Translations under genes and position numbers: made by a program | NCBI GenBank assembly: GCA_013347225.1 | Contig: CP054595.1 | Location: forward strand, 1,116,001 to 1,180,000 | Origin: Candidatus Accumulibacter similis | GTDB lineage: Bacteria > Pseudomonadota > Gammaproteobacteria > Burkholderiales > Rhodocyclaceae | Length of the DNA stretch: 64,000 bases | Reading direction: 5' to 3' | Notes under the pieces: generated by a model | The model's input: only the letters and a program-made list of their open reading frames with translations | Databases searched by the model: none | Told to the model about the DNA's origin: nothing | Shown: positions 1,004 through 56,015 of the stretch, one piece after another | Numbering within the stretch: position 1 is the first letter of the stretch | Layout of the letters: each line of letters starts with the position of its first letter

Positions 1004-1960
1004 TCAGGCCACCCGGTTCTGCGGCTCGCCGCGGGCGAACGCCTCGAGGTTGGCGGTAAGCTGGTCGGCGAGCGCCTGCATCGCCGGCTGGCTGGCCCAG
1101 GCGACATGCGGCGTCAGCAGGAAGTTCGGCAGCGCCAGCAGTTCCGTCGTCAGCAGGGGGTTGCCGGCGGTGGGCGGCTCGACGCTGAGAACATCGAAGC
1201 CGGCGCCGGCGATGCGGCCCTGCCGCAGGGCGGCGAGCAGCGCGGCCTCGTCGACGAGGCCGCCGCGGGCAGTGTTGAGCAGCAGCGCCGAGTGCTTCAT
1301 CGCCTGCAGTTCGTCGGCGCCGATCAGGTTGCGCGTCGCGGTGGTCAGCGGGCAGTGCAGCGAGATCACGTCCGCCTCGCGCAGGATCTGCGCGAACGGC
1401 GTGTAGCCCGGCCGCAGCGTCGCCGCGCCCTTGCGCTCGCTGCGCAGTACGCGCATGCCGAAAGCCTCGGCGAGGCGGGCAACGCCGCTGCCCAGGCTGC
1501 CGCTGCCGATGATCGCCAGCGTCGCGCCGAAGAGGTCGCGAATCGGATGGTCGAAGAAGCAGAACTGCTCGGCCTGCTGCCATCTGCCGGCGGCGACGGA
1601 CTGCCGGTACGCGACGAGGTTGCGCGACAGCGCCAGCAGCAGTGCGAAGACGTGCTCGGGAACCGTATGCACGGCATAGCCGCGGATGTTCGTGACGACG
1701 ATGCCGCGCGCCCGGCAGGCGTCGAGGTCCACGTTGTTGGTGCCGGTGGCGGCGACGGCGACCATCTGCAGCGCCGGCAGCGTGGCGATCAGTCCGGCGT
1801 CGAGCTGCAGCTTGTTGATGATGGCGATGGTGGCGTCCGCCAGTCGTTCGGCGACCTCCGCCTGCCGCGTGCAGGGATGCTCCAGCCAGTGATGCGGGAA
1901 CGCCGGCCGGCGGACATCGGCGACGATCGACTCGCGCTCGAGATAGACGATGCGGTGCAT
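1004..1960 (-). CDS. D-2-hydroxyacid dehydrogenase (glycerate dehydrogenase / hydroxypyruvate reductase-like)
   Basis: 318 residues. The protein shows the Rossmann motif GSGSLGSGVARL near residue 152, the NTARGGLVDE segment after it, and an HVAWAS segment near the C-terminus carrying the catalytic His, as in NAD(P)H-dependent D-2-hydroxyacid dehydrogenases. TGTNNVD near residue 92 is the substrate-side signature. It resembles the HprA/glycerate dehydrogenase branch, which interconverts hydroxypyruvate and D-glycerate, but the sequence alone does not settle the substrate. It is packed between a half aldehyde dehydrogenase (3-base gap) and modA (5-base gap), at the tail of the DabA gene train. 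Confidence 0.85.
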   Translation of the reverse strand: MHRIVYLERESIVADVRRPAFPHHWLEHPCTRQAEVAERLADATIAIINKLQLDAGLIATLPALQMVAVAATGTNNVDLDACRARGIVVTNIRGYAVHTVPEHVFALLLALSRNLVAYRQSVAAGRWQQAEQFCFFDHPIRDLFGATLAIIGSGSLGSGVARLAEAFGMRVLRSERKGAATLRPGYTPFAQILREADVISLHCPLTTATRNLIGADELQAMKHSALLLNTARGGLVDEAALLAALRQGRIAGAGFDVLSVEPPTAGNPLLTTELLALPNFLLTPHVAWASQPAMQALADQLTANLEAFARGEPQNRVA

Positions 1961-1963
1961 GGC

Positions 1964-2665
1964 TCAGTCCGCGAGCTGCCGGCCGTGGCGGCCGGCGATC
2001 TCGGCGACTCGCTTTGCCAGCTCCGGTTCGCCGGCAAACAGCAGCCGGCCGAGCGCAGGCGCCGCACAAAGACCTTCGATCGCCTCCAGGTCGCCATGCA
2101 GGACGTTGAAGGCGCCAGCCGGAAAGCCGCTCTGCGCCATCAGTTCGGCCAGCGCGACGGCGGCCGACGGGGCTTTCGGACTTGGTTTGGCGACCACGGT
2201 CGAGCCGGCCAGCAGTGTCGGGACGGCGCGCTGCAGCAGGCCCGCCAGCGGCGCCCGGTCGTCGCAGACGATGGCGACGACACCCCCGTCGCTGGCCAGC
2301 GTCGCTGCGTCGGCGGCGCGCAGCAGGCGCAGCGCCGCCTCCACCTCGGCCGCAGCGGCAGCTTCTTCCTGGCCGCTTTCTTCGGCGATCAGGCCGGCAA
2401 AATGGCTGCCGTATCCGGCCAGCGCATCGGCGAGTGTCGCCAGCAGGCGCGCGCGCTCACCGACGGCCAGCGACCGCCATGCCGGCAGCGCCGCGGTGGC
2501 GGCGTCGACGGCCGTCGCCGCCTGGCCGGCGCCGCACAGCGGCGTCCGCCGCCGGATCAGGCCGCTGCGCGGGTCGCGGACGTCGAAGAACGCGGGCGCC
2601 ATGGTCAGGAAGGCATGGCCGTTGATCCACAAGGGTACGGCCAGGATGTCGTCGGTGTCTTTCAT
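1964..2665 (-). CDS. Truncated aldehyde dehydrogenase family protein (N-terminal half only)
   Basis: 233 residues, against about 480 for a full aldehyde dehydrogenase. The visible part is the first half of the cofactor-binding domain: a WINGHAF-like opening, the AALPAWRSL...RARLLATLADAL helix region, and LLAGSTVVAKPSPKAPSAA, which carries the Lys/Pro NAD-binding signature. The protein ends shortly after a degenerate FAGE segment, just before the catalytic Glu and Cys would appear, so aldehyde oxidation is not expected. The frame is intact and tightly packed with its neighbours, so it may be a functional nucleotide-binding remnant and not a recent break. No C-terminal half was seen downstream. 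Confidence 0.75.
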   Translation of the reverse strand: MKDTDDILAVPLWINGHAFLTMAPAFFDVRDPRSGLIRRRTPLCGAGQAATAVDAATAALPAWRSLAVGERARLLATLADALAGYGSHFAGLIAEESGQEEAAAAAEVEAALRLLRAADAATLASDGGVVAIVCDDRAPLAGLLQRAVPTLLAGSTVVAKPSPKAPSAAVALAELMAQSGFPAGAFNVLHGDLEAIEGLCAAPALGRLLFAGEPELAKRVAEIAGRHGRQLAD

Positions 2666-2719
2666 CAGGTTCCTCGCAAAGATCGGTGGGGTGGCTGTCG
2701 CGCGTCGGGAAACTGCGGC

Positions 2720-4216
2720 TCAGAGACCGGCAAGTGCCGTCACCCAGGCCTCCGCGGCTGGTCGCAACAGCTCGAGGAGCGGCATCGGGTACACACCGAT
2801 GCCGAGCACCAGCGCCGCCGGCACGAGCAGCAGCGCCATTTCTCGCGGCAGCAGATCGTCGGCGGCAGCCACTTCCGCTCCTTTCGCTGGCCCGAAGAAA
2901 GCCTGCCGGAACGGCGACAGGAAAGCGGCGGCGGCGAGCACCATGCCGAACAGCGCTGCGAGGCCGGCGCCGGTATGGTCATGCAGCGCAGCGACGATGA
3001 TCAGCAGCTCGCCCGGAAAGCCGCTGGTGCCAGGCAGGCCGATGCCGGCGAGGCCGAAGAGCAGGAAGAAGGCGCCGAGTCGGGGCATGCTGCGCAGGGC
3101 GCCGCCGAGTTGCGCGACGTCGGTCGATCCGGTGCGCCGCTGCAGGAACGACAGGACCAGGAAGGCGCCGCCACCGGCGAGGCTGAAGTTGAGCAACTGC
3201 AGGAGGACTCCCTGCAGTCCGTACACCGAGAACGACGCCAGGCCGAGCAGCACCAGACCGACGTGCGCCAGACTCGAGTAGGCGAGCATGCCGCGCAGAT
3301 TGCTGTGCACCAGCGCGGCGACACCGCCATAGAGGATCGCCACGGTGCCGAATCCGGCGAGCAGCCAGTGCAGCTCGCGGGCGGCGATCGGCGCCAGCGG
3401 GATCGCCAGGCGGATCAGGCCGTAGGCGCCGAGTTTCAGTCCGACGAGGACGCCGGTCACCGCCACCGGCGCGCTGATCGCCAGCGGCGGCAGCCAGGTG
3501 TGCAGCGGCACCAGTGGCACCTTGGCGCCAAGGCCGAGCAGCAGGAGCAGGAAGACGAGGTACTGTCGTTGCTCCGGCAGTGGCCTGGCGAGCAGCGTCG
3601 GCAGGTCGAACACCGGGGCAGCGCCGCCGGCGGGCGGCAAGGCGAGTGCCAGGAAGCCGAAGAGCAGCGGCACCCCACCCGCCAGCATGACGAGGAAATA
3701 GCGGACGGCAGCGCCCTGACGGCCCGTCCCGATGCCCCACTGGCTGACGAGGAAGTAGAGCGGCGGCAGGGTGAATTCCCAGCAGAAGAAGAACAGGATC
3801 GTGTCGAGGGCACAGAAGACGCCAAGTGTTGCCGCTTCGAGGAGCAGCAGCAGGGCGAAGTGGAAGCCCGGCGAGAGAGGTGACGCGGCGGCCGTCACGC
3901 GCCACCCGGCGACGATGGCGCCACAGAAGAGCAACGCCGTTGCCGGCAGGAAGAGCAGCGACAGCCCGTCGACGCCGACCCGGTAGGCGATGCCGAGGTC
4001 GACGATCCAGTCGACAGATTCGCACAACTGGAAGCCGGGATCGGCGCCATCGAAGACGCCGACGATCAGCAGCGAGCAGAACAGCGTCAGCAGGCCGCTG
4101 CCGAGAGCGATGTGCTGCGCCAGCGGCGCCCGCCGCAGCAGCGCGCAGCCCAGCGCGCCGAGCAGCGGCAGCGCCAGCAGGGCGCTCAACAGCGGCCAGT
4201 GGACGATCTCATTCAT
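2720..4216 (-). CDS. NuoM-like antiporter subunit (proton-conducting membrane transporter)
   Basis: 498 residues, many hydrophobic helices, PF00361 family (NuoL/M/N, Mrp antiporters). Start ATG at 4216 (MNEIVHWPLLSALL), overlapping the stop of the upstream gene by 8 bases. The channel residues of NuoM are present: Glu in FFCWEFTLPPLYF, Lys in LGAKVPLVPLHTWLP, and a second Lys in LVGLKLGAYGLIR. It is thus likely competent for proton (or cation) movement. It belongs to the DabA cluster, and no genes for peripheral complex I subunits (NuoB-I) are nearby, so a role in respiratory complex I is unlikely. Confidence 0.85.
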   Translation of the reverse strand: MNEIVHWPLLSALLALPLLGALGCALLRRAPLAQHIALGSGLLTLFCSLLIVGVFDGADPGFQLCESVDWIVDLGIAYRVGVDGLSLLFLPATALLFCGAIVAGWRVTAAASPLSPGFHFALLLLLEAATLGVFCALDTILFFFCWEFTLPPLYFLVSQWGIGTGRQGAAVRYFLVMLAGGVPLLFGFLALALPPAGGAAPVFDLPTLLARPLPEQRQYLVFLLLLLGLGAKVPLVPLHTWLPPLAISAPVAVTGVLVGLKLGAYGLIRLAIPLAPIAARELHWLLAGFGTVAILYGGVAALVHSNLRGMLAYSSLAHVGLVLLGLASFSVYGLQGVLLQLLNFSLAGGGAFLVLSFLQRRTGSTDVAQLGGALRSMPRLGAFFLLFGLAGIGLPGTSGFPGELLIIVAALHDHTGAGLAALFGMVLAAAAFLSPFRQAFFGPAKGAEVAAADDLLPREMALLLVPAALVLGIGVYPMPLLELLRPAAEAWVTALAGL

Positions 4217-5711
4217 GCCGGACGAAGTACTCTGCCAGTGCCGCGGTCGCACTGTCGGTCAGTTCGAGCCAGGGTTGCGGGTAGAAGCCGGCGGCGAGCA
4301 GCACGAGCAGCGTGGCGCCGCCAACGAAGTACTCCATGCGGCTGGTGCGGGCGATGCGCGACGCCGGCAGGTCGCGCGGCCGCGGCGCGAGGAAGGCGCG
4401 CTGGAAAGCCCAGAGCAGGAAGCCGGCGGCGGCGACGTTGCCGAGCGCTGTGGCGATCGTCGGCAGGGCGCCGAAGGTCTCGATCGAAGCCTCGAGTACC
4501 AGATGCACGGCATCGAAGCCCGGTGTTCCCGGCATGCCGAGGATCGCCAGGCCACCGATCAGGAAAGCGATGGTGATGAAGGGGATGCGGTCGAAGAGGC
4601 CGCCGAGCCGGGCCAACTCGGTCGTGCCGGTGCGGCGGTACACGTAGCCGATCATCAGCAGCATCAGCGTCACCGCCAGGCCGAAGTTGACCGCCAGCAG
4701 CAGTGCGCCCTGCAATCCCGCGGGGTGCAGCGTGAACAGGCCGATGATGATCAGGCTGGTGTGGCTGACGACGGCAAAGGCCATCAGCCGGCGCAGATTG
4801 ATCTGGCGAAAGGCGAGGATGGCGGCGAAGAAGACGCCGACCATGGCGAAGGCGACGACGTAGGTCTGCCAGATCATCACCGCCTCGGCGGTCAGCGGCA
4901 GCAGGAAGCGGGCCATGCCGTAAATGCCGACCTTGACGCCGAGGAGCAGCACCGGGCCGACGGCGATCAGGCCGTAGCCCGCCGAGTTGGGGAGCCAGCC
5001 GTGCAGCGGGAACAGTGGCGTGCGGATGGCGAGGCCGTAGAACAGCAGGTAGAAGGCCACCGACTGGTACTTGCCGATCTGCGGTGTCTGCAGCAGGTCG
5101 AAGAGGTCGAAACTCCAGTGTCCGCCAAGCACGTCGACGTGGCTCCAGACGAGAACGACCGCACCGGCGACGAACAGGCCGCAGCCGAAGAACTGATACT
5201 GCAGGAAGCGCGACAGGGCGAGGTTCTCCTCGCTGGCCGAGGCCCAGCGCCAGAGCAGGTAGGCGACCAGCGCCAGTTGGACCGCCGAGGCGGCGGCAAA
5301 CCACAACAGGTTCATCGTCGTCAGCATCGTCATCTGCGCGCTTTCGATGAGCAGCAGTACGCTGAGCAGGTGCACCGGCGAGATCTGCTGCCGCGCCATG
5401 CCGTAGAACGAGAGCAGGACGCCGAGCAGGGCGGTGAGCAGGATGAACAGCACGCTGATGCCGTCGGCGGCGGCGTGATAGGCCAGCAGGTCGAAGCGTT
5501 CGGCGAACTGCATGGCGTTGCTTGAAACATCGATGCGGGCATGCAGGTCGATGGCGACGACCAGTTCGCCGATTGCGAACAGGCGACCGAGGATCAGCGC
5601 CAGATCCTGCTCGCGCATCACCAGCAGCAGCAGGCCGCTGGCCAGTGGCAGCCATTGCAGCGTCGCCAGCGGCGGGTAGCCGGCCTGCGTTGCCCAGAAG
5701 ATCTCGCTCAC
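4209..5711 (-). CDS. Divergent NuoM/NuoN-like antiporter subunit
   Basis: 500 residues, polytopic, PF00361 family by its central PLHGWLP motif and general layout. It departs from consensus where NuoM carries its TM5 glutamate: the segment reads LLWFAAASAVQLAL with no acid. The TM7 lysine motif reads AIRTPLFPLHGWLP (Arg for Lys). The later Lys in LLGVKVGIYGM is kept. It overlaps both neighbours (8 bases with the downstream NuoM-like gene, 4 bases with dabB), implying coupled translation. It may be a structural or modified antiporter module. Function is inferred from family and context. Confidence 0.8.
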   Translation of the reverse strand: MSEIFWATQAGYPPLATLQWLPLASGLLLLVMREQDLALILGRLFAIGELVVAIDLHARIDVSSNAMQFAERFDLLAYHAAADGISVLFILLTALLGVLLSFYGMARQQISPVHLLSVLLLIESAQMTMLTTMNLLWFAAASAVQLALVAYLLWRWASASEENLALSRFLQYQFFGCGLFVAGAVVLVWSHVDVLGGHWSFDLFDLLQTPQIGKYQSVAFYLLFYGLAIRTPLFPLHGWLPNSAGYGLIAVGPVLLLGVKVGIYGMARFLLPLTAEAVMIWQTYVVAFAMVGVFFAAILAFRQINLRRLMAFAVVSHTSLIIIGLFTLHPAGLQGALLLAVNFGLAVTLMLLMIGYVYRRTGTTELARLGGLFDRIPFITIAFLIGGLAILGMPGTPGFDAVHLVLEASIETFGALPTIATALGNVAAAGFLLWAFQRAFLAPRPRDLPASRIARTSRMEYFVGGATLLVLLAAGFYPQPWLELTDSATAALAEYFVRHE

Positions 5712-7254
5712 AGGATCACCACGAAGGTCGCCATGACCATCAGCATCAGGTAGCGCGGCTGTTCGAGCAGTGCTTCGATGGCATCGGCGTAATGCCCGAT
5801 CTGCCGCAGATGCCTGCCCAGCGTGCCGCCGTCACCGAGCAGCAGACGGTCCTCGAGCGCCTGCAGGCGATTGGCGAATGCGAACAGTGCACGGCCGGCC
5901 AGACCGTGGCCGCGAATCAGGTCGTCGCCGGCGATGCCACTTCCCGCACGCTCGTCGTCGCGCGGCGCGCCGAGCAGTGGATCGATGAACCGCTCGTCGA
6001 GTGCGCGCACGTCCCTGCCGAGCGCGAGGGTCGGGCGCGTCAGCAGGCTGTTGGCCAGCGGCTCGATCCAGAAGCGCTGCAGGGCCGCCGTGTAAGCCCA
6101 GCGCCAGTTCGCCAGCCAGCGCGGCAGCGGTCGTGCCGGTTGCCGCACGAGGTGCATGTAGGCCGGAGCGAGCAGGAACTGGTAGGCGCGCCAGCTGGCA
6201 TGCAGCCCGGCGTGGCAGGCTGCGAGCGAGAACAGTCCGAGACCACAGCAGAGGACCATCAGACCGACCTGGGTCACGGTTGCGAATACCAGCGCCGACT
6301 TGACGTCGCTCTGCACCAGCCCGCAGAGGCTGCCGTAGGCTGCGGTCAGCAGTCCGATCACAGCCAGCAGCGCCATCAGGTCGGGCACCTGCAGCAACAG
6401 GCCCTGCAGTCGGCACAGGAGGTAGACCCCGGCATGTACCAGCAGCGAGCCGTAGAACAGCGCCGATGACGGTGTCGGGCCTTCGAGGGCGCGGCCGATC
6501 CACGGCGTGAACGGCAACTGCGCCGACTTGACCAGCGCCGCGACGACGAAACCGGCTGCCAACAGGCGTATCGTCACCTTTCCCATGCTGCCGTCACCGG
6601 CCAGCCAGGTCCACTCGAGGGTGCCCACCGACCACACCGCGAGACCGATGCCGAGCATGAACCCGGCGTCGCCGATGCGGTTGGTGATGAAGGCATAGAG
6701 GGCGTTGCGGGTCGCCGGCGGGCGTTCCCAGGCGTAGCCGATGAGCAGCCACGAGCTGAAACCGGCGAGTTCCCAGCCGACGAAGCAGAGGACCGCATTG
6801 CCGGCGAGGACGATCAGCAGCATGCCGGCGAGGAACAGGCAGAGGCCGAGGAAGAAGCGCTGGAAGCCGCTTTCCCGGTGCAGGTAGGTGGCCGAGAAGC
6901 GGATCGTGATCCAGCTGATCAGCGTCACCAGCGTCGCCGCCGGCAGGCTGTAGGCGTCGAGGACGAAGGACAGGCGAACCGGCACCGCGCCGATGCGCAG
7001 CCAGTCGCCGAAGGCGAGATGCGTCGGCAACTCGCCGCCAAGGGCGGCGAGATCGAGCAGCACGAGCAGCAGCAGCGCGGCCAGTGTGGCGCCGCCGGCG
7101 ATGCCGGCGGTGAACGGCTCGCCGGCATCGCCACCGCCGCGGCGCAGCAACAGCCGCAGGCTGAGCAGCAGCGCCGCCAGCAGGGGCAGCAGCGGCACCA
7201 GCCAGAGGACGGTACTGACCGCGGCGAGGGGCGCGAAAAGGGTGTCGAATGGAC

Positions 7255-7258
<4 letters not shown>
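5708..7258 (-). CDS. dabB: NuoL-like subunit, probable DabB of an inorganic-carbon transporter
   Basis: 516 residues, polytopic, clearly NuoL/MrpA type: GWELAGFSSWLLIGYAWERP carries the conserved TM5 Glu, LVKSAQLPFTPWI the TM7 Lys, and SLLVHAGVYL the conserved His. It lacks the long C-terminal lateral helix of true NuoL (about 613 residues). The start (ATG at 7258, MSPFDTLF) overlaps the dabA stop as ATGA. In characterised DAB systems, the gene next to dabA is a NuoL-like DabB that couples ion flow to CO2 hydration. The same pairing here supports that role; the symbol is assigned from context. Confidence 0.82.
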
Positions 7259-10431
<3,173 letters not shown>

Positions 10432-32283: not shown

Positions 32284-32540
32284 TTTTCGCATGCTGGCAC
32301 CCATAATGTCCCGCATGGTCGTAATTCCGGCAAACCGGATGCGTTCTGGACGCGGGTTCGATTCCCGCCACCTCCACCACTGCGGGGGTGTACTGGTTTC
32401 GACAGGGCGAGTGATGGCGAGCAGGCGACCCGAAAGGCGACGGACGTAATCCGAGCAAATCCATAAACGCCAACGATGAGCGTTTCGCACTGGCCGCTTG
32501 AGGCCTGCTGAGGGCGTAGCCGTCCAATAAACAGAATGGC
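32284..32540 (+). ncRNA. ssrA: Permuted two-piece tmRNA (transfer-messenger RNA), tag ANDERFALAA
   Basis: The tRNA-like 3' part comes first. T-arm GCGGG-TTCGATT-CCCGC is at 32352-32368, the acceptor strand CACCTCC at 32369-32375 and ACCA at 32376-32379. After only four bases (32380-32383), GGGGGTG (32384-32390) begins the other piece and pairs with it, including the G3-U pair that alanyl-tRNA synthetase recognises. CAGGGCG (32403-32409) pairs with CGTTCTG (32342-32348) as helix P2 across the two pieces. The resume codon GCC starts near 32469; the frame reads A-N-D-E-R-F-A-L-A-A then TGA. tmRNA rescues stalled ribosomes and tags products for proteolysis. Both outer ends are approximate. Confidence 0.93.
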
Positions 32541-32542
32541 TA

Positions 32543-32567
32543 TCGGCGGGGGCTTCGGCCCCCGCCG
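32543..32567 (+). terminator. Terminator hairpin after the tmRNA gene
   Basis: CGGCGGGGGC-TTCG-GCCCCCGCCG is a perfect ten-pair GC stem with a UUCG loop. There is no long T run behind it (TCATTGG), so it may end transcription less cleanly or protect the precursor 3' end. Confidence 0.75.
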
Positions 32568-32585
32568 TCATTGGTCGGGACGGTT

Positions 32586-32615
32586 GGAGGCACCGGCAGA
32601 CGAGGCACCGGCAGA
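32586..32615. repeat. Two tandem copies of a 15-base unit
   Basis: The unit GAGGCACCGGCAGAC occurs twice without spacing in the 240-base non-coding stretch (32568-32808) between the tmRNA terminator and the next gene. Nothing else was recognised in that stretch. Confidence 0.7.
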
Positions 32616-49343: not shown

Positions 49344-49534
49344 CGGGCCGGCTGCGGGTTGGAAGGTCGTTCAGCGTACCCGATTTCGCCGCCGCTGCGG
49401 CTGTGCGGCGGCATCCGGCGGCGGCCCCGGGGGCGCTGCCGGAGAAAAAAGCGCCCGATCGCGATCCTGCTGGTTGAAAGGTACCCGTGTATCGGCTAGG
49501 GTTTCGGCTTTCGCCGTTCCGGGAGATCAGGAAG

Positions 49535-50848
49535 ATGGTCGCTGCCAGTCGTGTCACCGCCTACGAACCGATCGAGACTGCCAGTCGAGACGAGATAAGT
49601 GCGCTGCAGCTCGAGCGCCTGCGCTGGTCGCTGCGCCACGCCTACGACCATATCGAGCATTACCGGCGCAAGTTCGATGCGCAGGGCGTTCACCCGGACG
49701 ATCTGAAGACGCTCGACGATCTCGCGCGCTTCCCCTTCACGAGCAAGGACGACCTGCGGCAGAACTACCCGTTCGGGATGTTCGCCGTGCCGCGCGACCG
49801 CGTCGTGCGGGTGCACGCCTCGTCGGGAACGACCGGGCAACCGACCGTCGTCGGTTACACGCAGAACGATATCGACATGTGGGCGACGCTGATGGCGCGT
49901 TCGATCCACGCCGCTGGCGGCCGCCGCGGCGACATGGTGCACATCGGCTATGGCTACGGCCTGTTCACCGGCGGTCTCGGTGCGCACTATGGTGCCGAGC
50001 GTCTCGGCTGCACGGTCATCCCGATGTCCGGCGGGCAGACCGAAAAGCAGGTGCAGTTGATCAATGATTTCAAACCCGACATCATCATGGTGACACCTTC
50101 GTACCTGCTCAACCTGGCGGACGAGTTCAAGCGGCAGCGAATCGATCCGACGGCGAGCGGGCTGCGCGTCGGTCTCTTCGGCGCGGAACCGTGGACCAAC
50201 CAGATGCGTGTCGAGATCGAGAGCACCTTCGCCATCGATGCCATCGACCTCTATGGGCTCTCCGAAGTGATCGGTCCGGGTGTCGCCAGCGAGTGCATCG
50301 AGAGCAAGGACGGGCCGGTGATCTGGGAGGATCACTTCTACCCCGAGGTGATCGATCCGCTGACCGGCGAGGTGCTCCCGGAAGGCCGACACGGCGAGCT
50401 GGTCTTCACCTCGCTGTCGAAAGAGGCGCTGCCGATGATCCGCTACCGCACGCGCGACCTGACCTGCCTGCTGCCGCCAACGGCGCGCTCGATGCGGCGG
50501 ATCGACAAGATCACCGGCCGTTCGGACGACATGCTGATCGTCCGCGGCGTCAATGTCTTTCCGTCGCAGATCGAGGAATTGATCCTCAAGCAGCCGAAGC
50601 TGTCGCCGCACTACCTGATCGAGGTCTGGCGCGACGGCCATCTCGATTCGGTGGCCGTCGATGTCGAACTCAAGCGGGAGTACCGCTACCTGCCGGCGGT
50701 CGACAAGGAGCACGTCGCGCACTCGCTGCAGCGGCACATCAAATCGTTCATCGGCATTTCGACCGAAGTGCGCATCGCCGACATCGGTGGCATCGAGCGC
50801 TCGCTCGGCAAGGCGCGGCGGGTCATCGACCGGCGGCCGCGCGAGTAG
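49535..50848 (+). CDS. paaK: Phenylacetate-CoA ligase
   Basis: 437 residues from ATG 49535 (ribosome site GGGAG/AGGAAG just upstream), the standard PaaK length. The AMP-binding loop VHASSGTTGQPTVVGYT, the YGLSEVIGPGVASEC motif, and the C-terminal KITGRSDDMLIVRGVNVFPSQIEE hinge identify the adenylate-forming PaaK family, which activates phenylacetate (or a related aryl acid) with CoA and ATP. No other paa genes (ring epoxidase, hydratase) are present in the window, so it may serve anaerobic aromatic metabolism or a salvage role. Confidence 0.92.
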   Translation: MVAASRVTAYEPIETASRDEISALQLERLRWSLRHAYDHIEHYRRKFDAQGVHPDDLKTLDDLARFPFTSKDDLRQNYPFGMFAVPRDRVVRVHASSGTTGQPTVVGYTQNDIDMWATLMARSIHAAGGRRGDMVHIGYGYGLFTGGLGAHYGAERLGCTVIPMSGGQTEKQVQLINDFKPDIIMVTPSYLLNLADEFKRQRIDPTASGLRVGLFGAEPWTNQMRVEIESTFAIDAIDLYGLSEVIGPGVASECIESKDGPVIWEDHFYPEVIDPLTGEVLPEGRHGELVFTSLSKEALPMIRYRTRDLTCLLPPTARSMRRIDKITGRSDDMLIVRGVNVFPSQIEELILKQPKLSPHYLIEVWRDGHLDSVAVDVELKREYRYLPAVDKEHVAHSLQRHIKSFIGISTEVRIADIGGIERSLGKARRVIDRRPRE

Positions 50849-50985
50849 CAGCGGACGGCGAGGCGCCAGTGGCAGTCTCGTCGCGTCTGCCTCCGCGTGT
50901 TATCTTTGCGCCTGGACGGCCATGCAGGCACGCCGTCCCGCCCTGCACCATTGCCACCGCCACCTGGGAGCTTCCAGCGCGCGCC

Positions 50986-51816
50986 GTGAATCTCGTCTTT
51001 GATGGTCCCGGCCAGCCCATCGGGCTGGTACCGCACAGCCTCATCGCCCTGCTGCCGCTGGGTGTCTGGGCCTATCGGCGCTTCGTCAGCAAGCGGGGCA
51101 GTTCGCTCGTCTGGCTGCTGGCCGCTGTGGGGAGCCTTCTGCTGCTCAACGGGATCGTGCTCTGGGACCAGTTGCGGGTGCGGCGGATGGACGAGGAAGG
51201 CACCCTCCAGGTCACGCGCGGCACGGTCACGCAGAGCTGGCACATCGTCTCGCGTGAGCGTGACTGGACGCGCAGCACGCTGAGCTACACGACCACGGTC
51301 AGCGAGGGCTTCGACGCCGGCGGCGTGCGGTTCCGCTGGAACGTTGGCGACAGTTTCTCGCCCGCAACCTTTTCGAATGCGGGCGAGCCGCCGCTCTCTT
51401 TTCCACAAGGCACCGCGGTCGAAGTCAGCTGGTTCGTCGATCCCGCCAGTCAGGACGAGCGCCGCATCGTCCGTCTGCGCATGGGTCTGCCGGGTGAACG
51501 GGCAACTTCTGCCGATGCTGAATTCGCGGCGGTGATTGCCGGATTCGTCGCTGCGCTCGAGTCAGGAAACGGCGCGAGGCTGTCGGAGCTGATGCACTTT
51601 CCGGTGAGCCTCGGCGGACACCTGCTCGGTCCCGAGCAGGCGGAAAGCTTGTGGGCAGCGCTATCGATGCCCGCGCTGCACACCTGCCTGCAAACGGCCG
51701 TGGCAGACGACGTCTCCGACGGATCACGGCGCATCGTCTGCCACGGCGTGACGCTGGTCTTCGCGCGTACGGCTGCCGGCGCGTGGCGGCTGCGCGAGCT
51801 GCACCAGGGATCCTGA
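50986..51816 (+). CDS. Hypothetical membrane-anchored protein
   Basis: 276 residues from GTG 50986 (start uncertain). Two hydrophobic segments near the N-terminus (SLIALLPLGVWAYRRF and LVWLLAAVGSLLLLNGIVLW) lead to a soluble domain of about 200 residues. Its first part (GTVTQSWHIVSRERDWTRSTLSY..., VRFRWNVGDSF) recalls DUF3592-type beta domains. The last part (IAGFVAALESGNGARLSELMHFPVSL...) looks like a small alpha/beta module. Function unknown. It follows paaK on the same strand after 137 bases. Confidence 0.65.
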   Translation: MNLVFDGPGQPIGLVPHSLIALLPLGVWAYRRFVSKRGSSLVWLLAAVGSLLLLNGIVLWDQLRVRRMDEEGTLQVTRGTVTQSWHIVSRERDWTRSTLSYTTTVSEGFDAGGVRFRWNVGDSFSPATFSNAGEPPLSFPQGTAVEVSWFVDPASQDERRIVRLRMGLPGERATSADAEFAAVIAGFVAALESGNGARLSELMHFPVSLGGHLLGPEQAESLWAALSMPALHTCLQTAVADDVSDGSRRIVCHGVTLVFARTAAGAWRLRELHQGS

Positions 51817-51949
51817 TCCCGGCACGCGGCCCGGGGGGAAACGGCGCCAGCCTTTCCCGGCACGGCAAGGAGTGGCGCGCGGCGCGGGACCGTGTGCGGA
51901 GGTCGAACCAACTACGCCCAAGAGAGGGCATTGCGGAAGGGATTCGTCC

Positions 51950-52327
51950 ATGATGAGCAACGTTGCCCCCCGACTGCTGGCCGGTCTCCTGGCGCTTTGC
52001 CTCGTGTCCGTTGACGTCGCAGGTGCTGCCGGGAGGGCTGGCGCGCTGCAGGGCGAATACGAGTTCCATGGCCGGACGCGCGTCGACCCGCCTCCGGGCG
52101 AGCCACACGATACGCATCTCGGGCTGGTGCTCGAAGGTGCGGTGGCGCGCGACCTCTATCGCCGCATGCGGGTGCGCAGCGTGCGCGACCCCTGTCTCGA
52201 TGATGGTTCGCGCAGCAAGATTCAGGGCCCGCTGCGCTGCAGCGAGATGGCCAGCGGGCGGCACTGGCGCTGCGAGTTTGCGATCCAGCTCGATACGCTG
52301 GCGCTCGTTGCCGACGGCGTTTGCTAG
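51950..52327 (+). CDS. Secreted hypothetical protein
   Basis: 125 residues from ATG 51950 (or 51953). A signal peptide (LLAGLLALCLVSVDVAGAAG) is followed by a short mature domain with three Cys (VRDPCLDDG, PLRCSEM, HWRCEFAI) and a final Cys at the C-terminus, suggesting disulfide bonds in the periplasm. I do not recognise the family. The gene is convergent with the TIR gene, 64 bases between stops. Confidence 0.65.
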   Translation: MMSNVAPRLLAGLLALCLVSVDVAGAAGRAGALQGEYEFHGRTRVDPPPGEPHDTHLGLVLEGAVARDLYRRMRVRSVRDPCLDDGSRSKIQGPLRCSEMASGRHWRCEFAIQLDTLALVADGVC

Positions 52328-52391
52328 TCGAGCCGACAGGCAGGTACGCCGTCGGCGAGCGGCGGCCGTGTCCACGCCATTGGCGGGACCT

Positions 52392-53720
52392 CTATGGCGC
52401 TGCGCTTTCGTCGTCCCGCGCCAGACTGCCGACGTGCGTTGCCGACTGGCGCAGTCTGTCGAGGTCGCCTTCGGCGCAGTCGATGTAGCTGTAGATGCCG
52501 ATGATCGGTGGCAACTCGCGCTCGGAGTACAGGCGCAGCGTCCGGATCATCGATTGCCGCGTGCTGTACTCCTTGAGCTTGGCGCACTGGAACTCGTCCC
52601 AGCAGACTGGCGAAGCGGTGTAGTCGGGCGAGAGGATGGCGATGAAGTGGCGCGTCCTGTTGACCGCGTCGGAGATGATCCTGAGCCACTGCCCGCCGAC
52701 CGGGATCGATTTGCGATCGTGGAAGACGCGTGCCGACGGCGCGCACTGCTGCAGGGCGCGAACGAATTCCGCGACTTCGCGCTCCTGGCGGTGCGCATAG
52801 CTGATGAAAAAATCGTAAGCGCCAGCGTCGTCATCGGCGACAGCCGCCGCTGCGGTTTCGCCCGGGCCTGCGGCCACCGGTGGGCGGCGATCGATGCGCG
52901 CGAAGAGGCGCTGCAGCAGTTCCTTCTCGTCGTCCGCGGCGGCGCCCAGGAGATCCTGGCGCAGGTGTTGTTCGCAGGTGGCGACCATCTGCTCGGCGAG
53001 CCGCTGCAGCGGCACGCGGTCGCCCGTCGGCGCCCGCCCGGCCGCTGCACGGCCGCCGGCGAGCCGCTGCTGGTGACGCTGCCGCGATGCGGCAAACAGG
53101 GCGGCGGCGGCAGTCGCTTTCTCCCCCGAGAAGGCGACGATCTTCAACTGCCGGATCGGCAGCCCCTGTTCGAGCCAGAAGATCGCGGCGTCGAGCAGCC
53201 GCGGCAGCAGGTCCTCGAGTGCGACCTGCTGGTTGCCGGTCGCCAGCAGCGGCATGGCGACGCGGTCGATGTCGAAGCGGCGCTGGCCGTCGCGGTCGGG
53301 GATGATGAAGTTGTTCAGGCAACGGAAGACGAAGCCGACGCGGTCCTCGATGTTCGCCCGCTCGTTGCCGGCGTCGGCGACGAATGCCGGATACAGCGGC
53401 TCGAAGCAGATGATGCGGCGAAAGTTGAATCGGCTGGCAAGCTCCGGCGACAGCGTCTGCGACAGCCAGCAGCCGAGGCGGACGCGCTCATCCTCCTCTT
53501 TCCGGCGGGCGATTGCGCGCATGTCGAGACCACGCTCGAAGAGGCTGCTGAACAGCGTTCCGGGGTTCGGCGTATAGCTGTCGGGAAAGGCCGAGACGAC
53601 CAGCGCGTCGACCGCGTGCGTCGGCGGAATCGCCGCCAGGTCGCCGGCAAGGAGCTGGATGCTGGCTTCCTGCCCGTCACCCCGGTGGGGCAGCACCGTC
53701 AGTTCGTCAATGATCTGCAT
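52392..53720 (-). CDS. Macro-like domain fused to a TIR domain
   Basis: 442 residues, soluble. The C-terminal TIR domain (about 302-440) begins AYDFFISYAHRQ, has a BB-loop region FHDRKSIPVGGQWLRIISDAV, and CWDEFQCA with Glu at residue 376 at the position of the catalytic Glu of NAD-cleaving TIRs. The N-terminal 200 residues look like a macro domain: LLAGDLAAI (21-29), AVDALVVSAF (36-45) and RVAMPLLATGN (153-163) match its nucleotide-binding strands. Such domains bind ADP-ribose-type products of NAD cleavage. A Gln/Arg linker joins them. The ATG overlaps the end of a small upstream ORF by 14 bases. A role in phage defence or NAD signalling is inferred; the TIR call is firm, the macro call moderate. 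Confidence 0.8.
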   Translation of the reverse strand: MQIIDELTVLPHRGDGQEASIQLLAGDLAAIPPTHAVDALVVSAFPDSYTPNPGTLFSSLFERGLDMRAIARRKEEDERVRLGCWLSQTLSPELASRFNFRRIICFEPLYPAFVADAGNERANIEDRVGFVFRCLNNFIIPDRDGQRRFDIDRVAMPLLATGNQQVALEDLLPRLLDAAIFWLEQGLPIRQLKIVAFSGEKATAAAALFAASRQRHQQRLAGGRAAAGRAPTGDRVPLQRLAEQMVATCEQHLRQDLLGAAADDEKELLQRLFARIDRRPPVAAGPGETAAAAVADDDAGAYDFFISYAHRQEREVAEFVRALQQCAPSARVFHDRKSIPVGGQWLRIISDAVNRTRHFIAILSPDYTASPVCWDEFQCAKLKEYSTRQSMIRTLRLYSERELPPIIGIYSYIDCAEGDLDRLRQSATHVGSLARDDESAAP

Positions 53721-53946
53721 GCACTACCTCCTGCAACGCGGTGGGCCAACCGATGGCGACCGTATGGTAACGCAGCCGCGCCAGCCGCGGGTCCTCCTTG
53801 CGGGTGCCGGTCAGTCGCTGCTGCCGTGCCAGTTGCTCGTGCCGCTCCCGACTGCTCACGAGCGCGCTGTCGCGCCGGTCCGGGCCGTGCGCCGGGCAGG
53901 CCCTGCCGATGGCCGCTGCCTTGACTTTCGCCTGCTGCGCCGACAC
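53707..53946 (-). CDS. Small hypothetical protein coupled to the macro-TIR gene
   Basis: 79 residues from GTG 53946 (TTG 53952 is also possible). It is highly charged with many Arg and Gln (SAQQAKVKAAAIGRACPAHG, SSRERHEQLARQQRLTGTRK) and mostly helical, with no signal peptide. Its stop lies inside the start of the TIR gene (14-base overlap), a sign of translational coupling. I do not recognise a family; it could be a partner or adaptor of the TIR protein, or a remnant. Composition does not look like a shadow of another gene, because nothing else is coded here. Confidence 0.5.
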   Translation of the reverse strand: MSAQQAKVKAAAIGRACPAHGPDRRDSALVSSRERHEQLARQQRLTGTRKEDPRLARLRYHTVAIGWPTALQEVVHADH

Positions 53947-54112
53947 GCGCAAGCGGTGGATCGACGGTTAGAATGCCGGCAGGGGTGGCGTCGAGGACAG
54001 CGCCGCCGTTCTTTTGCCGTTCCCTGTACCAATATCCGGCAGCGCCATCCGGTGGGGATCGTACCGAGGTCGCCCGATGCGAACGCAGCCGGAGTCTGTG
54101 GAGCCCCCTGTC

Positions 54113-54328
54113 ATGCGCAAACTGATCATTGGTCCGCTGATCGCCTACCTGACGGGCCTGCGCTTTCCGTTCCTGTTCGGCATAGCCGCCGTGCTGTTCG
54201 TCGTCGACCTGTTCGTTCCCGACGTCATTCCCTTTGCCGACGAGATCCTGCTCGGCCTGGGCGCTGCCCTCCTTGGCGCGTGGAAGGAGAAGCGGCAGGA
54301 GCGCGGGTCGCGAGCCGGCCCGTCTTAG
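54113..54328 (+). CDS. DUF6116 small membrane protein
   Basis: 71 residues: MRKLIIGPLIAYLTGLRFPFLFGIAAVLFVVDLFVPD... with one or two hydrophobic helices and a PFADEILLGLG motif, followed by a basic WKEKRQERG tail. These are the marks of the small DUF6116 inner-membrane proteins of beta/gammaproteobacteria; function unknown. A possible -10 box TAGAAT lies near 53970. Confidence 0.8.
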   Translation: MRKLIIGPLIAYLTGLRFPFLFGIAAVLFVVDLFVPDVIPFADEILLGLGAALLGAWKEKRQERGSRAGPS

Positions 54329-54560
54329 GAGCACGCGTCAATCGCGGCGCGGCCGGTTCGAGGTGTTGGCATCCGGCCGGCGGTCGTCTCCAGCCCGGTA
54401 GCGATCCTGTCCCCGGCTGTCTGGAATGCGCTTGCCAGATGGTCGAGCCAAGGTCTATGCTCTATGACTGGTGCCGGTCTGATCGCCCGGCCGCCGTGAG
54501 CAGCGCTTCCTTCGTTGCTGGCGGGTTTGCTCGTTAGTCCCATTTCGTGCCCGAGGATGC
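54329..54560. other. Intergenic stretch before the DUF3300 gene
   Basis: 232 bases with no recognisable gene. It should hold the promoter of the DUF3300-DUF2950 pair, but no strong -35/-10 set or operator was identified. Confidence 0.35.
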
Positions 54561-56015
54561 ATGATGAAATCGACCTGTTCACGACCCGGCGCGCTGCTGA
54601 CGGCGCTCGTTTTCGCCTTTTCGCCGGCGCTGGCGCAGCAGCCGCCGGCGGCATCGCCCGCTGCCGCCGCCACGCCCGTCGCGAAGACCTTTTCGCAGCA
54701 GGACCTGGATCGGCTGCTGGCGCCGATCGCCCTCTACCCCGATGCGTTGCTGGCGCAGATCCTGATGGCGTCCACCTATCCGCTGGAGGTCGTCGAGGCA
54801 GCGCGCTGGGCGAAGGCCAATCCCAAGGTGACCGGCAAGGCGCTTGAGGATGCGATGGCGAAGCAAACCTGGGATCCCGCCGTCCGGTCGCTGACCGCGG
54901 TCCCGCAGGTCCTGCAGCAGATGAACGAGAATCTCGACTGGATGCAGAAACTGGGCGATGCCTTCCTCGCCCAACAGCAGGACGTGATGGACACCGTGCA
55001 GGGCCTGCGTGCGCGGGCCGATGCCACCGGCAACCTGAAGACCAGCGCGCAGCAGGTGGTACGGACGGAGGTGCAGGGCAGCCAGAAGATCTACGTCGTC
55101 GAGTCGCCGAAGCCGGAGGTCGTCTACGTGCCGACCTACAACCCGACCGTGGTGTACGGGAGCTGGTGGTATCCGACGCCGCCGTATTATGTGTACCCAC
55201 CGGCCTACGTCTACCCGCCGGGACTCGCCTTCGCCACCGGCGTCGTCGTCGGCGCGGCGATCTGGGGCGCCTGCAACTGGGGTTGGGGGCGCGGCAGTGT
55301 CGATGTGAACGTCAATCGCTACAACTCGTTCAACCGCACCAACATCAGCAACAGCAACTGGAACCACAACGTGGCCCACCGCGGCGGCGTCGCCTATCGC
55401 GACCCGAACGTCGCCCGGCAGTACAACCGCGGCGGCAACACGCAGGCTGCCCAGGCGCGCGAGCAGTTTCGCGGCCGCGCCGAGAGCGGACGGTCCGAAC
55501 TGAAGGGAATGGACCGCGCCGAACTGAACGATCGCGTGCGGTCGGCTGACGATCGCTCGCGGGAGAACCTCGGGGGTCGTGGCGAGGTGGGCCGTGGTGA
55601 CGGTGGTCGCGGTGGTGATCGCGCTTCTGCCAGCGATCGCCTGCAGGGCGGCGATCGTGGCGCTGCCGCAGGCGGGCGTGACCGTGCCGACGGCGGTGCT
55701 GCGCGCGCCGATGCCGGTGATCGTTTCGGCGGCGGCGACCGACAGCACGGCTCGGGCTTCGGCGACCGTGGCGGCGGTTTTTCCGGGGTCGGCAACGGTG
55801 CTTCGACGCGTGCGGCGAGCCAGCGCGGCAACGCCAGCCGGGCGGACATGGGCGGCAGCCGCGGTGGCGCCAGCTTTGGTGGCGGCGGCGGTCGCAGCGG
55901 TGGCGGCGCCAGCTTCGGCGATGGCGGTGGCCGGGGCGGCGGCGGCTTCGGCGGTGGCGGTGGCGGTGGCTTCGGCGGTGGTGGTGGCCGCGGTGGTGGC
56001 GGTCGTGGTCGCTAG
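54561..56015 (+). CDS. DUF3300 protein with long glycine-rich tail
   Basis: 484 residues. A signal peptide (ALLTALVFAFSPALAQ) is followed by the DUF3300 domain (about 45-230): FSQQDLDRLLAPIALYPDALLAQILMASTYPLEVVEAARWAK and PEVVYVPTYNPTVVYGSWWYP, both diagnostic. From about residue 320 the protein turns into Arg/Asp/Gly-rich repeats and ends in nearly pure Gly runs (FGGGGGGGFGGGGGRGG). It is probably periplasmic or cell-surface; role unknown. DUF3300 genes are often found beside DUF2950 genes, as here (37-base gap). Confidence 0.88.
   Translation: MMKSTCSRPGALLTALVFAFSPALAQQPPAASPAAAATPVAKTFSQQDLDRLLAPIALYPDALLAQILMASTYPLEVVEAARWAKANPKVTGKALEDAMAKQTWDPAVRSLTAVPQVLQQMNENLDWMQKLGDAFLAQQQDVMDTVQGLRARADATGNLKTSAQQVVRTEVQGSQKIYVVESPKPEVVYVPTYNPTVVYGSWWYPTPPYYVYPPAYVYPPGLAFATGVVVGAAIWGACNWGWGRGSVDVNVNRYNSFNRTNISNSNWNHNVAHRGGVAYRDPNVARQYNRGGNTQAAQAREQFRGRAESGRSELKGMDRAELNDRVRSADDRSRENLGGRGEVGRGDGGRGGDRASASDRLQGGDRGAAAGGRDRADGGAARADAGDRFGGGDRQHGSGFGDRGGGFSGVGNGASTRAASQRGNASRADMGGSRGGASFGGGGGRSGGGASFGDGGGRGGGGFGGGGGGGFGGGGGRGGGGRGR

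What the first reader, a model, noticed from the sequence alone, without database searches (positions are those of the whole stretch)
52392..53720. Macro-like domain fused to a TIR domain: candidate NAD-linked immune protein
TIR domains with the Glu seen here cleave NAD+ or make cyclic ADP-ribose signals in Thoeris-type and plant-like immunity, while macro domains bind ADP-ribose products (some Thoeris ThsA effectors are TM-macro proteins). Having both in one chain could mean a self-contained sensor-effector or product-controlled NADase. The N-terminal match (GDLAAI, VDALVVSA, VAMPLLATGN) is by eye.
Basis: partly seen in the sequence, partly recalled or inferred. Interest (0 to 1): 0.8.

Follow-up and report, generated by a model that had tools for sequence, protein, structure and literature searches.

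The report
Macro–TIR fusion: ADP-ribose-gated NAD killer
This bacterial protein joins a macro domain that Pfam does not recognise, a fold that in relatives often grips ADP-ribose, to a TIR domain that keeps the glutamate and three more active-site residues of a known NAD-destroying anti-phage enzyme, so it likely acts as a suicide switch in which an ADP-ribose-type signal would turn on NAD destruction.

The parts
52392..53720 (-). macro-TIR gene, 442 aa
   Evidence: 227 homologues at E<=1e-3
53085..53720 (-). N-terminal macro domain, residues 1-212 (SAFP variant, no NAAN/GGG motif)
53640..53645 (-). G26-D27, aligned to the GD of AF1521; in EcThsA an Asp (D83) holds the adenine N6
   Evidence: alignments; D27 in 110 of 120 listed homologues, N in 4, S in 1, gap in 5; EcThsA D83 from PMC11204291 section 7. 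That D27 equals D83 is inferred, not aligned directly
53229..53261 (-). V154-Q164, loop VAMPLLATGNQ (glycine loop, ligand loop 2 of macro domains)
   Evidence: aligned to AF1521 IAFPAVSAGIYG; A160, G162, Q164 each 120 of 120
52821..53084 (-). variable linker, residues 213-300, largely helical in the model; fastest-evolving part
   Evidence: identity 0.36-0.72 to five Accumulibacter orthologues against 0.69-0.93 (macro) and 0.75-0.93 (TIR); pLDDT <50 at 229-235 and 283-299
52431..52820 (-). TIR domain, residues 301-430
52593..52595 (-). E376 codon, predicted catalytic glutamate, aligned to Cat1 E74
   Evidence: alignment; E in 117 of 120 listed homologues, gap in 3; Cat1 E74 lines the NADase site, PMC12162218 passages
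50849..54560 (.). 3.7-kb interval between the paaK-like gene (49487-50848 +) and the DUF3300 gene (54561-56015 +) that holds the gene; the same interval is 186-306 bp in carrier-free genomes

Best explanation
The gene encodes a two-part protein, an N-terminal macro domain and a C-terminal TIR domain with a conserved NADase-type glutamate, that likely works as a nucleotide-gated NADase effector: an ADP-ribose-type signal is predicted to bind the macro domain, bring TIR domains together and thereby switch on NAD+ destruction that would arrest the infected cell. Shown here by computation: both domains, four conserved NADase site residues, the macro fold with its GD and glycine-loop positions kept and the MacroD NAAN/GGG motif absent, the patatin, TPR-S and DNPH1-like neighbours in Bacteroidota-type loci, and the insertion at a conserved site in Accumulibacter. 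Inferred: the ligand, the gating, the NADase activity and the anti-phage role. In Bacteroidota the small DNPH1-like protein is a candidate signal maker (inferred) and the CapV-like patatin a second killer (inferred). In Accumulibacter, where the gene stands alone, the signal would have to come in trans or be the TIR's own product, which would make the switch self-amplifying.
For: Macro fold. Sequence profile A6: 26 PDB hits at E<=1, 25 macro domains by name or title and one viral polyprotein chain (6qzu) that I recall as macro, best whole-sequence E=7.5e-5. HHalign against 27 canonical macro ORFs: 159 columns, Prob 75, E=2.5e-5, colinear. TIR closest by sequence to Cat1, a sensor-plus-TIR NADase: S307, D335, S370, E376 align with Cat1 site residues S7, D33, S68, E74 and are kept in 120, 119, 117 and 117 of 120 listed homologues. 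Ligand-binding domain plus TIR is the combination of known gated TIR effectors (Cat1, TIR-STING, TIR-SAVED; PMC12162218 passages, PMC11204291 discussion). Defence macro domains of ThsA bind ADPR-type nucleotides and oligomerise (PMC11204291). Of 13 Bacteroidota-type macro-TIR loci, a CapV-like patatin is on the same strand in 10, a TPR-S protein in 7, a DNPH1-like protein in 4; the L028 patatin matches CapV at 1.4e-23 and PADLOC phospholipase effectors at 5e-55. The macro family is reused with other effector-type domains: ART, DUF4145, C13 peptidase. Full-length gene in 5 of 25 Accumulibacter-genus genomes, closed site in carrier-free genomes.
Against: No ligand, NADase or phage result. The other three same-chain site residues of Cat1 (H8, N9, N10) align with Y308, A309, H310 and differ, and K121/Y122 were not aligned. 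Domain order is reversed relative to Cat1, whose TIR is N-terminal. PMC11204291 says ligand-driven oligomerisation had so far been reported for no macro domain other than ThsA's, so macro-driven TIR assembly has one precedent. The profile match to macro domains is carried mostly by the C-terminal third (positions 104-192), with single-stretch E-values of 0.0057 at best among the five alignments shown. In Accumulibacter there is no linked signal maker. The DNPH1-like partner is in only 4 of 13 loci, and 3 of 13 (L031, L032, L055) have no patatin. Loop 1 differs from canonical macros (SAFP for NAAN), so ADPR binding could be lost or altered. Only 4 of 16 N-domains touch PF01661, best E=0.0066. 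No relative in plasmids, phages or IMG/VR, so mobility is only inferred.
Confidence: 0.48

Rival explanations
1. The macro domain is a built-in brake: it binds or hydrolyses ADPR-type products of the TIR and so limits NAD loss or clears the signal.
For: Macro domains in TIR anti-phage systems were predicted to regulate them by potentially targeting cADPR (PMC9503650, passage). In two fusion families the linked enzyme uses NAD (TIR, ART).
Against: The NAAN/GGG motif of MacroD-type macros is replaced by SAFP and a glycine-poor loop. The fusions to DUF4145 and C13 peptidase are not known to make ADP-ribose, so a product brake would make little sense there.
Confidence: 0.18
2. The macro domain reads ADP-ribosylated proteins or nucleic acids, for example those made by phage ADP-ribosyltransferases, and triggers the TIR when it sees them.
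For: Closest folds include macroH2A and PARP9/PARP14 macro domains, and the MacroH2A-like class binds ADPR metabolites and ADP-ribosylated proteins without catalysis (PMC11204291 section 7).
Against: Fold similarity does not tell free from conjugated ADP-ribose; AF1521, macroH2A and PARP rows are tied in Z. No direct evidence either way.
Confidence: 0.15
3. The TIR is the signal maker rather than the killer: it produces a cADPR-like or base-exchanged nucleotide for the patatin or another effector, and the macro domain is a receptor for infection or for assembly.
For: CapV-like phospholipase in 10 of 13 Bacteroidota-type loci; TIRs of Thoeris make such signals (PMC12847820 passages).
Against: In Accumulibacter the gene is alone, with no linked effector seen. 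The nearest TIR by sequence, Cat1, is a depleting NADase.
Confidence: 0.13
4. The protein is not immune: it is a metabolic NAD/ADP-ribose sensor or regulator.
For: Accumulibacter neighbours look like housekeeping genes (several named by eye). No link to mobile elements was found.
Against: Patchy, at a site that is closed in carrier-free genomes, less conserved than its neighbour paaK (78, 78, 76, 65% against 98, 99, 96, 91%), and linked to CapV-like patatin in Bacteroidota-type loci.
Confidence: 0.06

Closest known systems
Cat1 (CARF-TIR effector of type III CRISPR-Cas)
   Same: A sensor domain joined to a TIR; best PDB sequence hit for this TIR (E=2.1e-7); site residues S7, D33, S68, E74 match here
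   Different: Sensor is CARF for cyclic oligoadenylate; TIR comes first; site residues H8, N9, N10 differ here. A CRISPR link was not looked for
Type II Thoeris (TM-macro ThsA with ThsB TIR)
   Same: Uses a macro domain and a TIR, NAD-derived signalling (PMC11204291, PMC12847820)
   Different: Two proteins, and the macro carries a membrane domain; here one chain that starts directly with the macro domain, and the macro is inferred to drive a TIR
TIR-STING and TIR-SAVED effectors of CBASS
   Same: Ligand-induced TIR assembly is the model for the proposed gating (PMC11204291 discussion)
   Different: Sensors bind cyclic nucleotides; no CD-NTase among the six L028 neighbours scanned
macroH2A1.1, AF1521, PARP9/PARP14 macro domains
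   Different: SAFP in place of the NAAN of canonical macros, glycine-rich loop 1 missing; invariant C84-W85, F106-E107, R133, N136 look untypical by inspection only
CapV-like patatin CBASS effectors
   Same: The L028 neighbour matches CapV (E=1.4e-23)
   Different: Lies with macro-TIR and TPR-S genes; no CD-NTase among the L028 neighbours scanned

Membership tests
Macro domain superfamily | Macro alpha/beta fold | tested here: met
Macro domain superfamily | Sequence homology to known macro domains | tested here: met
   Profile A6: 26 PDB hits at E<=1, 25 macro by name or title (two are macroH2A carrier fusions, 5iit and 7d3y), one (6qzu, viral polyprotein) recalled as macro; best 7.5e-5. A3: 6 hits, 5 by name and the same 6qzu, best 0.042
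Macro domain superfamily | Pfam PF01661 above its cut-off | tested here: not met
   No hit for this protein; 4 of 16 N-domains match, best E=0.0066; the two whose bits were shown, 14.1 and 15.7, are under the cut-off of 22
MacroD-type ADP-ribose hydrolase | NAAN and GGG motif | tested here: not met
   SAFP and a PTPG-type loop at these positions; that the motif marks MacroD-type macros is recalled
TIR NADase | TIR domain above Pfam cut-off | tested here: met
   PF13676 59.5 bits against 28
TIR NADase | Conserved catalytic glutamate | tested here: met
   E376 aligned to Cat1 E74; 117 of 120 listed homologues E, 3 gaps; required in all examined TIR NADases (PMC10022894 passage)
TIR NADase | Other Cat1 site residues | tested here: inconclusive
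   S7, D33, S68 kept; H8, N9, N10 replaced by Y308, A309, H310; K121 and Y122 not aligned
TIR NADase | NAD+ cleavage | not testable with these tools
   needs an assay
Thoeris | Separate ThsA effector and ThsB TIR genes side by side | tested here: not met
   Macro and TIR are one chain; in Accumulibacter no partner gene is kept beside it
Thoeris | PADLOC ThsA or ThsB model | tested here: inconclusive
   Only local TIR matches to ThsB models, E=0.0071 and 0.042
CARF-TIR (Cat1) | CARF sensor domain | tested here: not met
   N-domain is macro by profile and model
CBASS | CD-NTase in the operon | tested here: inconclusive
   Pfam of six L028 neighbours shows none; other loci were not fully annotated
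Anti-phage defence system | Protects from phage | not testable with these tools
   needs a challenge assay

The most novel reading that the evidence does not exclude
A previously unrecognised macro-domain sensor family (SAFP macros) plays for ADP-ribose messengers the role that CARF and SAVED play for cyclic nucleotides: one sensor gating several killers (TIR NADase, ADP-ribosyltransferase, DUF4145, C13 protease). In the solitary Accumulibacter form the TIR's own ADP-ribose product re-binds the macro domain, making a self-igniting, all-or-none NAD-collapse switch in a single protein.
Probability: 0.27. Interest if true: 0.86.

Novelty: new variant of a known kind. Interest (0 to 1): 0.66.

Why it matters
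The gated TIR effectors met in the papers read here sense cyclic nucleotides. A macro-gated TIR would show that an NAD-derived messenger can be the input and NAD the substrate of one protein, linking Thoeris-type signalling to Cat1-type killing. The family also adds a reusable macro sensor and a candidate patatin/TPR-S/DNPH1-like/macro-TIR operon, both testable in laboratory E. coli.

Tried and rejected
Rejected: filing it as Thoeris (one chain, no partner gene); the 'two-gene unit' (the small plus-strand gene at 51872-52327 is missing in L021 and L025); a phage or plasmid home (tblastn 0 records in plasmids and phages; IMG/VR pattern scan: 5 stretches, 0 relatives); a trans partner inferred from TPR-S (PF20308 matches in 24 of 25 Accumulibacter genomes, carriers and non-carriers alike).

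A first HHalign run was faulty: for minus-strand loci I translated the wrong strand; it gave Prob 0.2 and 0.5. One search repeated it with macro ORFs from 27 of 30 loci; 3 loci without a NAAN-type motif were dropped, so the NAAN comparison is against macros chosen for having it. It gave Prob 54.7 (A3) and 75 (24 N-domains).

Sampling shows rarity: 1 of 398 Pseudomonadota genomes, the own one; 8 of 294 in the family of G436, of which 5 are macro-TIR, 2 macro-ART (G602, G653) and 1 a marginal match at 8e-4 that I did not read (G664); 2 of 395 in its phylum, one of them the macro-DUF4145 protein. In these three searches only about 8-11 first-look candidates per genome were scored, so misses are possible. 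In one search only 7992 and only 7998 candidates were scored.

A2 holds the window protein and 87 of the 120 homologues listed; 33 were left out by eye to thin the set, about ten of them fragments or odd (P0081 has a scrambled-looking TIR middle). Because of that choice I recounted the key residues over all 120. A1 used 28 rows. In one search, 42 of 68 rows bear an ART Pfam label, 3 DUF4145, 1 C13, 1 an Ig-like domain, 21 none; all 68 match the N-domain profile and 7 of 68 were scanned with Pfam (P0189's Ig/PKD hits are under cut-off).

Papers seen: PMC11204291 abstract, sections 7 and 12; PMC12162218 abstract and passages; PMC12847820, PMC10022894, PMC9503650, PMC7159879, PMC8195603 passages only; all others in search listings only (24 papers: 10: 1, PMC7824862, not opened). 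Burroughs and Aravind 2020 and Burroughs 2015 are recalled and not held. That no macro-TIR fusion is named in print rests on searches (0 papers each) and 89 in an open-licence library only.

Full report
The gene. Minus strand 52392-53720 encodes 442 aa. The genome belongs to the Candidatus Accumulibacter group: named relatives carry the gene at up to 89% identity. Pfam finds only TIR (PF13676 6e-16, PF01582 1.7e-6). PADLOC gives TIR-region matches, best PDC-S66 at 1.2e-8 over residues 290-370; NCBIfam matches are far under cut-off. A protein search counts 227 relatives at E<=1e-3 and lists 120; the 87 that I aligned with it (A2) are colinear over both halves.

What kind of macro. The GD segment (G26-D27) and the VAMPLLATGNQ loop align with AF1521. 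Over the 120 listed homologues A160, G162 and Q164 are unchanged in 120, G26 in 115 (5 gaps), D27 in 110 (4 N, 1 S, 5 gaps). In EcThsA the adenine N6 is held by D83 and the pyrophosphate by G218 and T220 (PMC11204291 section 7); that D27 and G162 do the same here is inferred. The NAAN and GGG loop of MacroD-type macros is replaced by SAFP and a PTPG-type loop. This speaks for a binder, but activity was not tested.

The TIR half. Best PDB sequence hit is Cat1, a CARF-TIR NADase (2.1e-7). Read off that alignment, S307, D335, S370 and E376 pair with Cat1 S7, D33, S68 and E74, which line its NADase site; H8, N9 and N10 of that site pair with Y308, A309 and H310 and differ, and K121 and Y122, given by the second TIR, are outside the alignment (PMC12162218 passages). 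S307 is kept in 120 of 120, D335 in 119, S370 in 117 (2 gaps, 1 H), E376 in 117 (3 gaps). In Cat1 the site forms between stacked TIR domains after the sensor binds its ligand, and self-association is called critical for TIR NADases (PMC11204291 discussion). This is the model for the proposed gating. In Cat1 the TIR comes first; here it comes last.

Accumulibacter setting. Of 25 genomes of the genus (own included), 5 carry a full-length orthologue (G000, G003, G014, G023, G024) and 4 others a second macro-TIR subfamily, 39-42% identical over the macro part (G009, G015, G018, G022). In the three carriers where the paaK-like and DUF3300 genes lie on one contig with measurable distance, they are 2407, 3715 and 3718 bp apart; at four sites in three carrier-free genomes (G013 twice, G017, G021) they are 186-306 bp apart. 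So the gene sits in an inserted stretch at a conserved spot, or was lost cleanly from it. Other genomes had the pair apart, on different contigs or not found, and tell nothing. The protein is 78, 78, 76 and 65% identical to its orthologues in G003, G014, G023 and G024, whose paaK-like protein is 98, 99, 96 and 91%; only this one neighbour was compared. dN/dS is 0.27-0.51 in 15 pairs; the linker changes fastest.

Bacteroidota setting. I read 13 macro-TIR loci (L026-L036; L055, L056). A patatin lies on the same strand in 10 of 13 (L026-L030, L033-L036, L056): upstream in nine, downstream in L036; three small ORFs lie between in L026, and a TPR-S gene or a TPR-S and a DNPH1-like gene lie between in seven. 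The TPR-S protein is in 7 of 13, the 226-245-aa protein in 4 of 13. In L028, Pfam and PDB name them: patatin PF01734 3.5e-33 and CapV 1.4e-23; PF13281 1.7e-25 and PF20308 TPR-S 2.4e-21, with a TIR-effector-like N-terminus (PADLOC 1.5e-4); 12 of 14 PDB hits of the 226-aa protein are DNPH1/Rcl nucleotide N-hydrolases, best 7.9e-4, its Pfam hits being below cut-off. L030 and L033 look like close relatives, as do L027 and L028, so the loci are not all independent. PMC9503650 groups TIR, DrHyd and SLOG domains as one clade that may bind or process nucleotides (passage), and PMC11204291 reports ThsB subfamilies with an NDT-like active site. That the 226-aa protein makes the signal is a guess from this.

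A reused macro module. A search with divergent members found 68 proteins, all 68 matching the N-domain profile. Fusions: ADP-ribosyltransferase (Pfam label in 42 of 68; checked in L053, L054, P0140, P0144, P0159, P0168), also with DUF6508 in the same chain (P0144) or in the next gene (L053:8119-8508, L054:10984-11373); DUF4145 in L070 and P0133; a C13 peptidase ahead of the macro in P0186. Two partners use NAD+ and two are not known to, which fits a sensor better than a product brake.

Judgement. The architecture is sure; the macro identity is well supported; the catalytic glutamate is conserved; gating by an ADP-ribose-type ligand and a role against phage are inference (0.48). It would work like Cat1 or TIR-STING with a macro sensor, and is a member of neither. 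I found no paper that names a macro-TIR fusion in an open-licence library (0 papers each), which does not prove absence. Novelty: new variant of a known kind.

Noticed in passing
L053:6905-8107, L053:10359-11564, L054:9761-10972: Same macro domain fused to an ADP-ribosyltransferase domain; the first and third are followed by a DUF6508 gene (fused in P0144). 42 of 68 proteins bear an ART label.
   Followed up: partly
L070:988-2064 (-): Macro domain fused to DUF4145 (1.4e-5, above cut-off), with a PF01661 hit under cut-off (0.015).
   Followed up: partly
P0186 (593 aa): C13 peptidase domain followed by the macro domain at 398-590.
   Followed up: partly
L057:281-1381 (-), L058:8548-9627 (-), L059:4391-5452 (+), L060:8551-9597 (-): Second macro-TIR subfamily in four Accumulibacter genomes that lack the first; in L058 a TIR-AAA-TPR gene lies at 4000-7443.
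   Followed up: partly
L027-L030, L033 (downstream of macro-TIR): A further TIR protein (with a carboxypeptidase-regulatory-like domain in L028) and an outer-membrane-like protein follow the macro-TIR gene; a second TPR-S protein follows in L028-L030, L033 and L034.
   Followed up: no
window 32287-32592 (+): ARAGORN calls a tmRNA marked with an asterisk, tag ANDERFALAA; probably the permuted two-piece form (recalled).
   Followed up: no
L032 (Spirosoma validum), 1902-5024 (-): A large protein with similarity to the macro-TIR query (5.3e-7) lies about 5 kb away in a locus with TPR- and TIR-looking ORFs (by eye).
   Followed up: no
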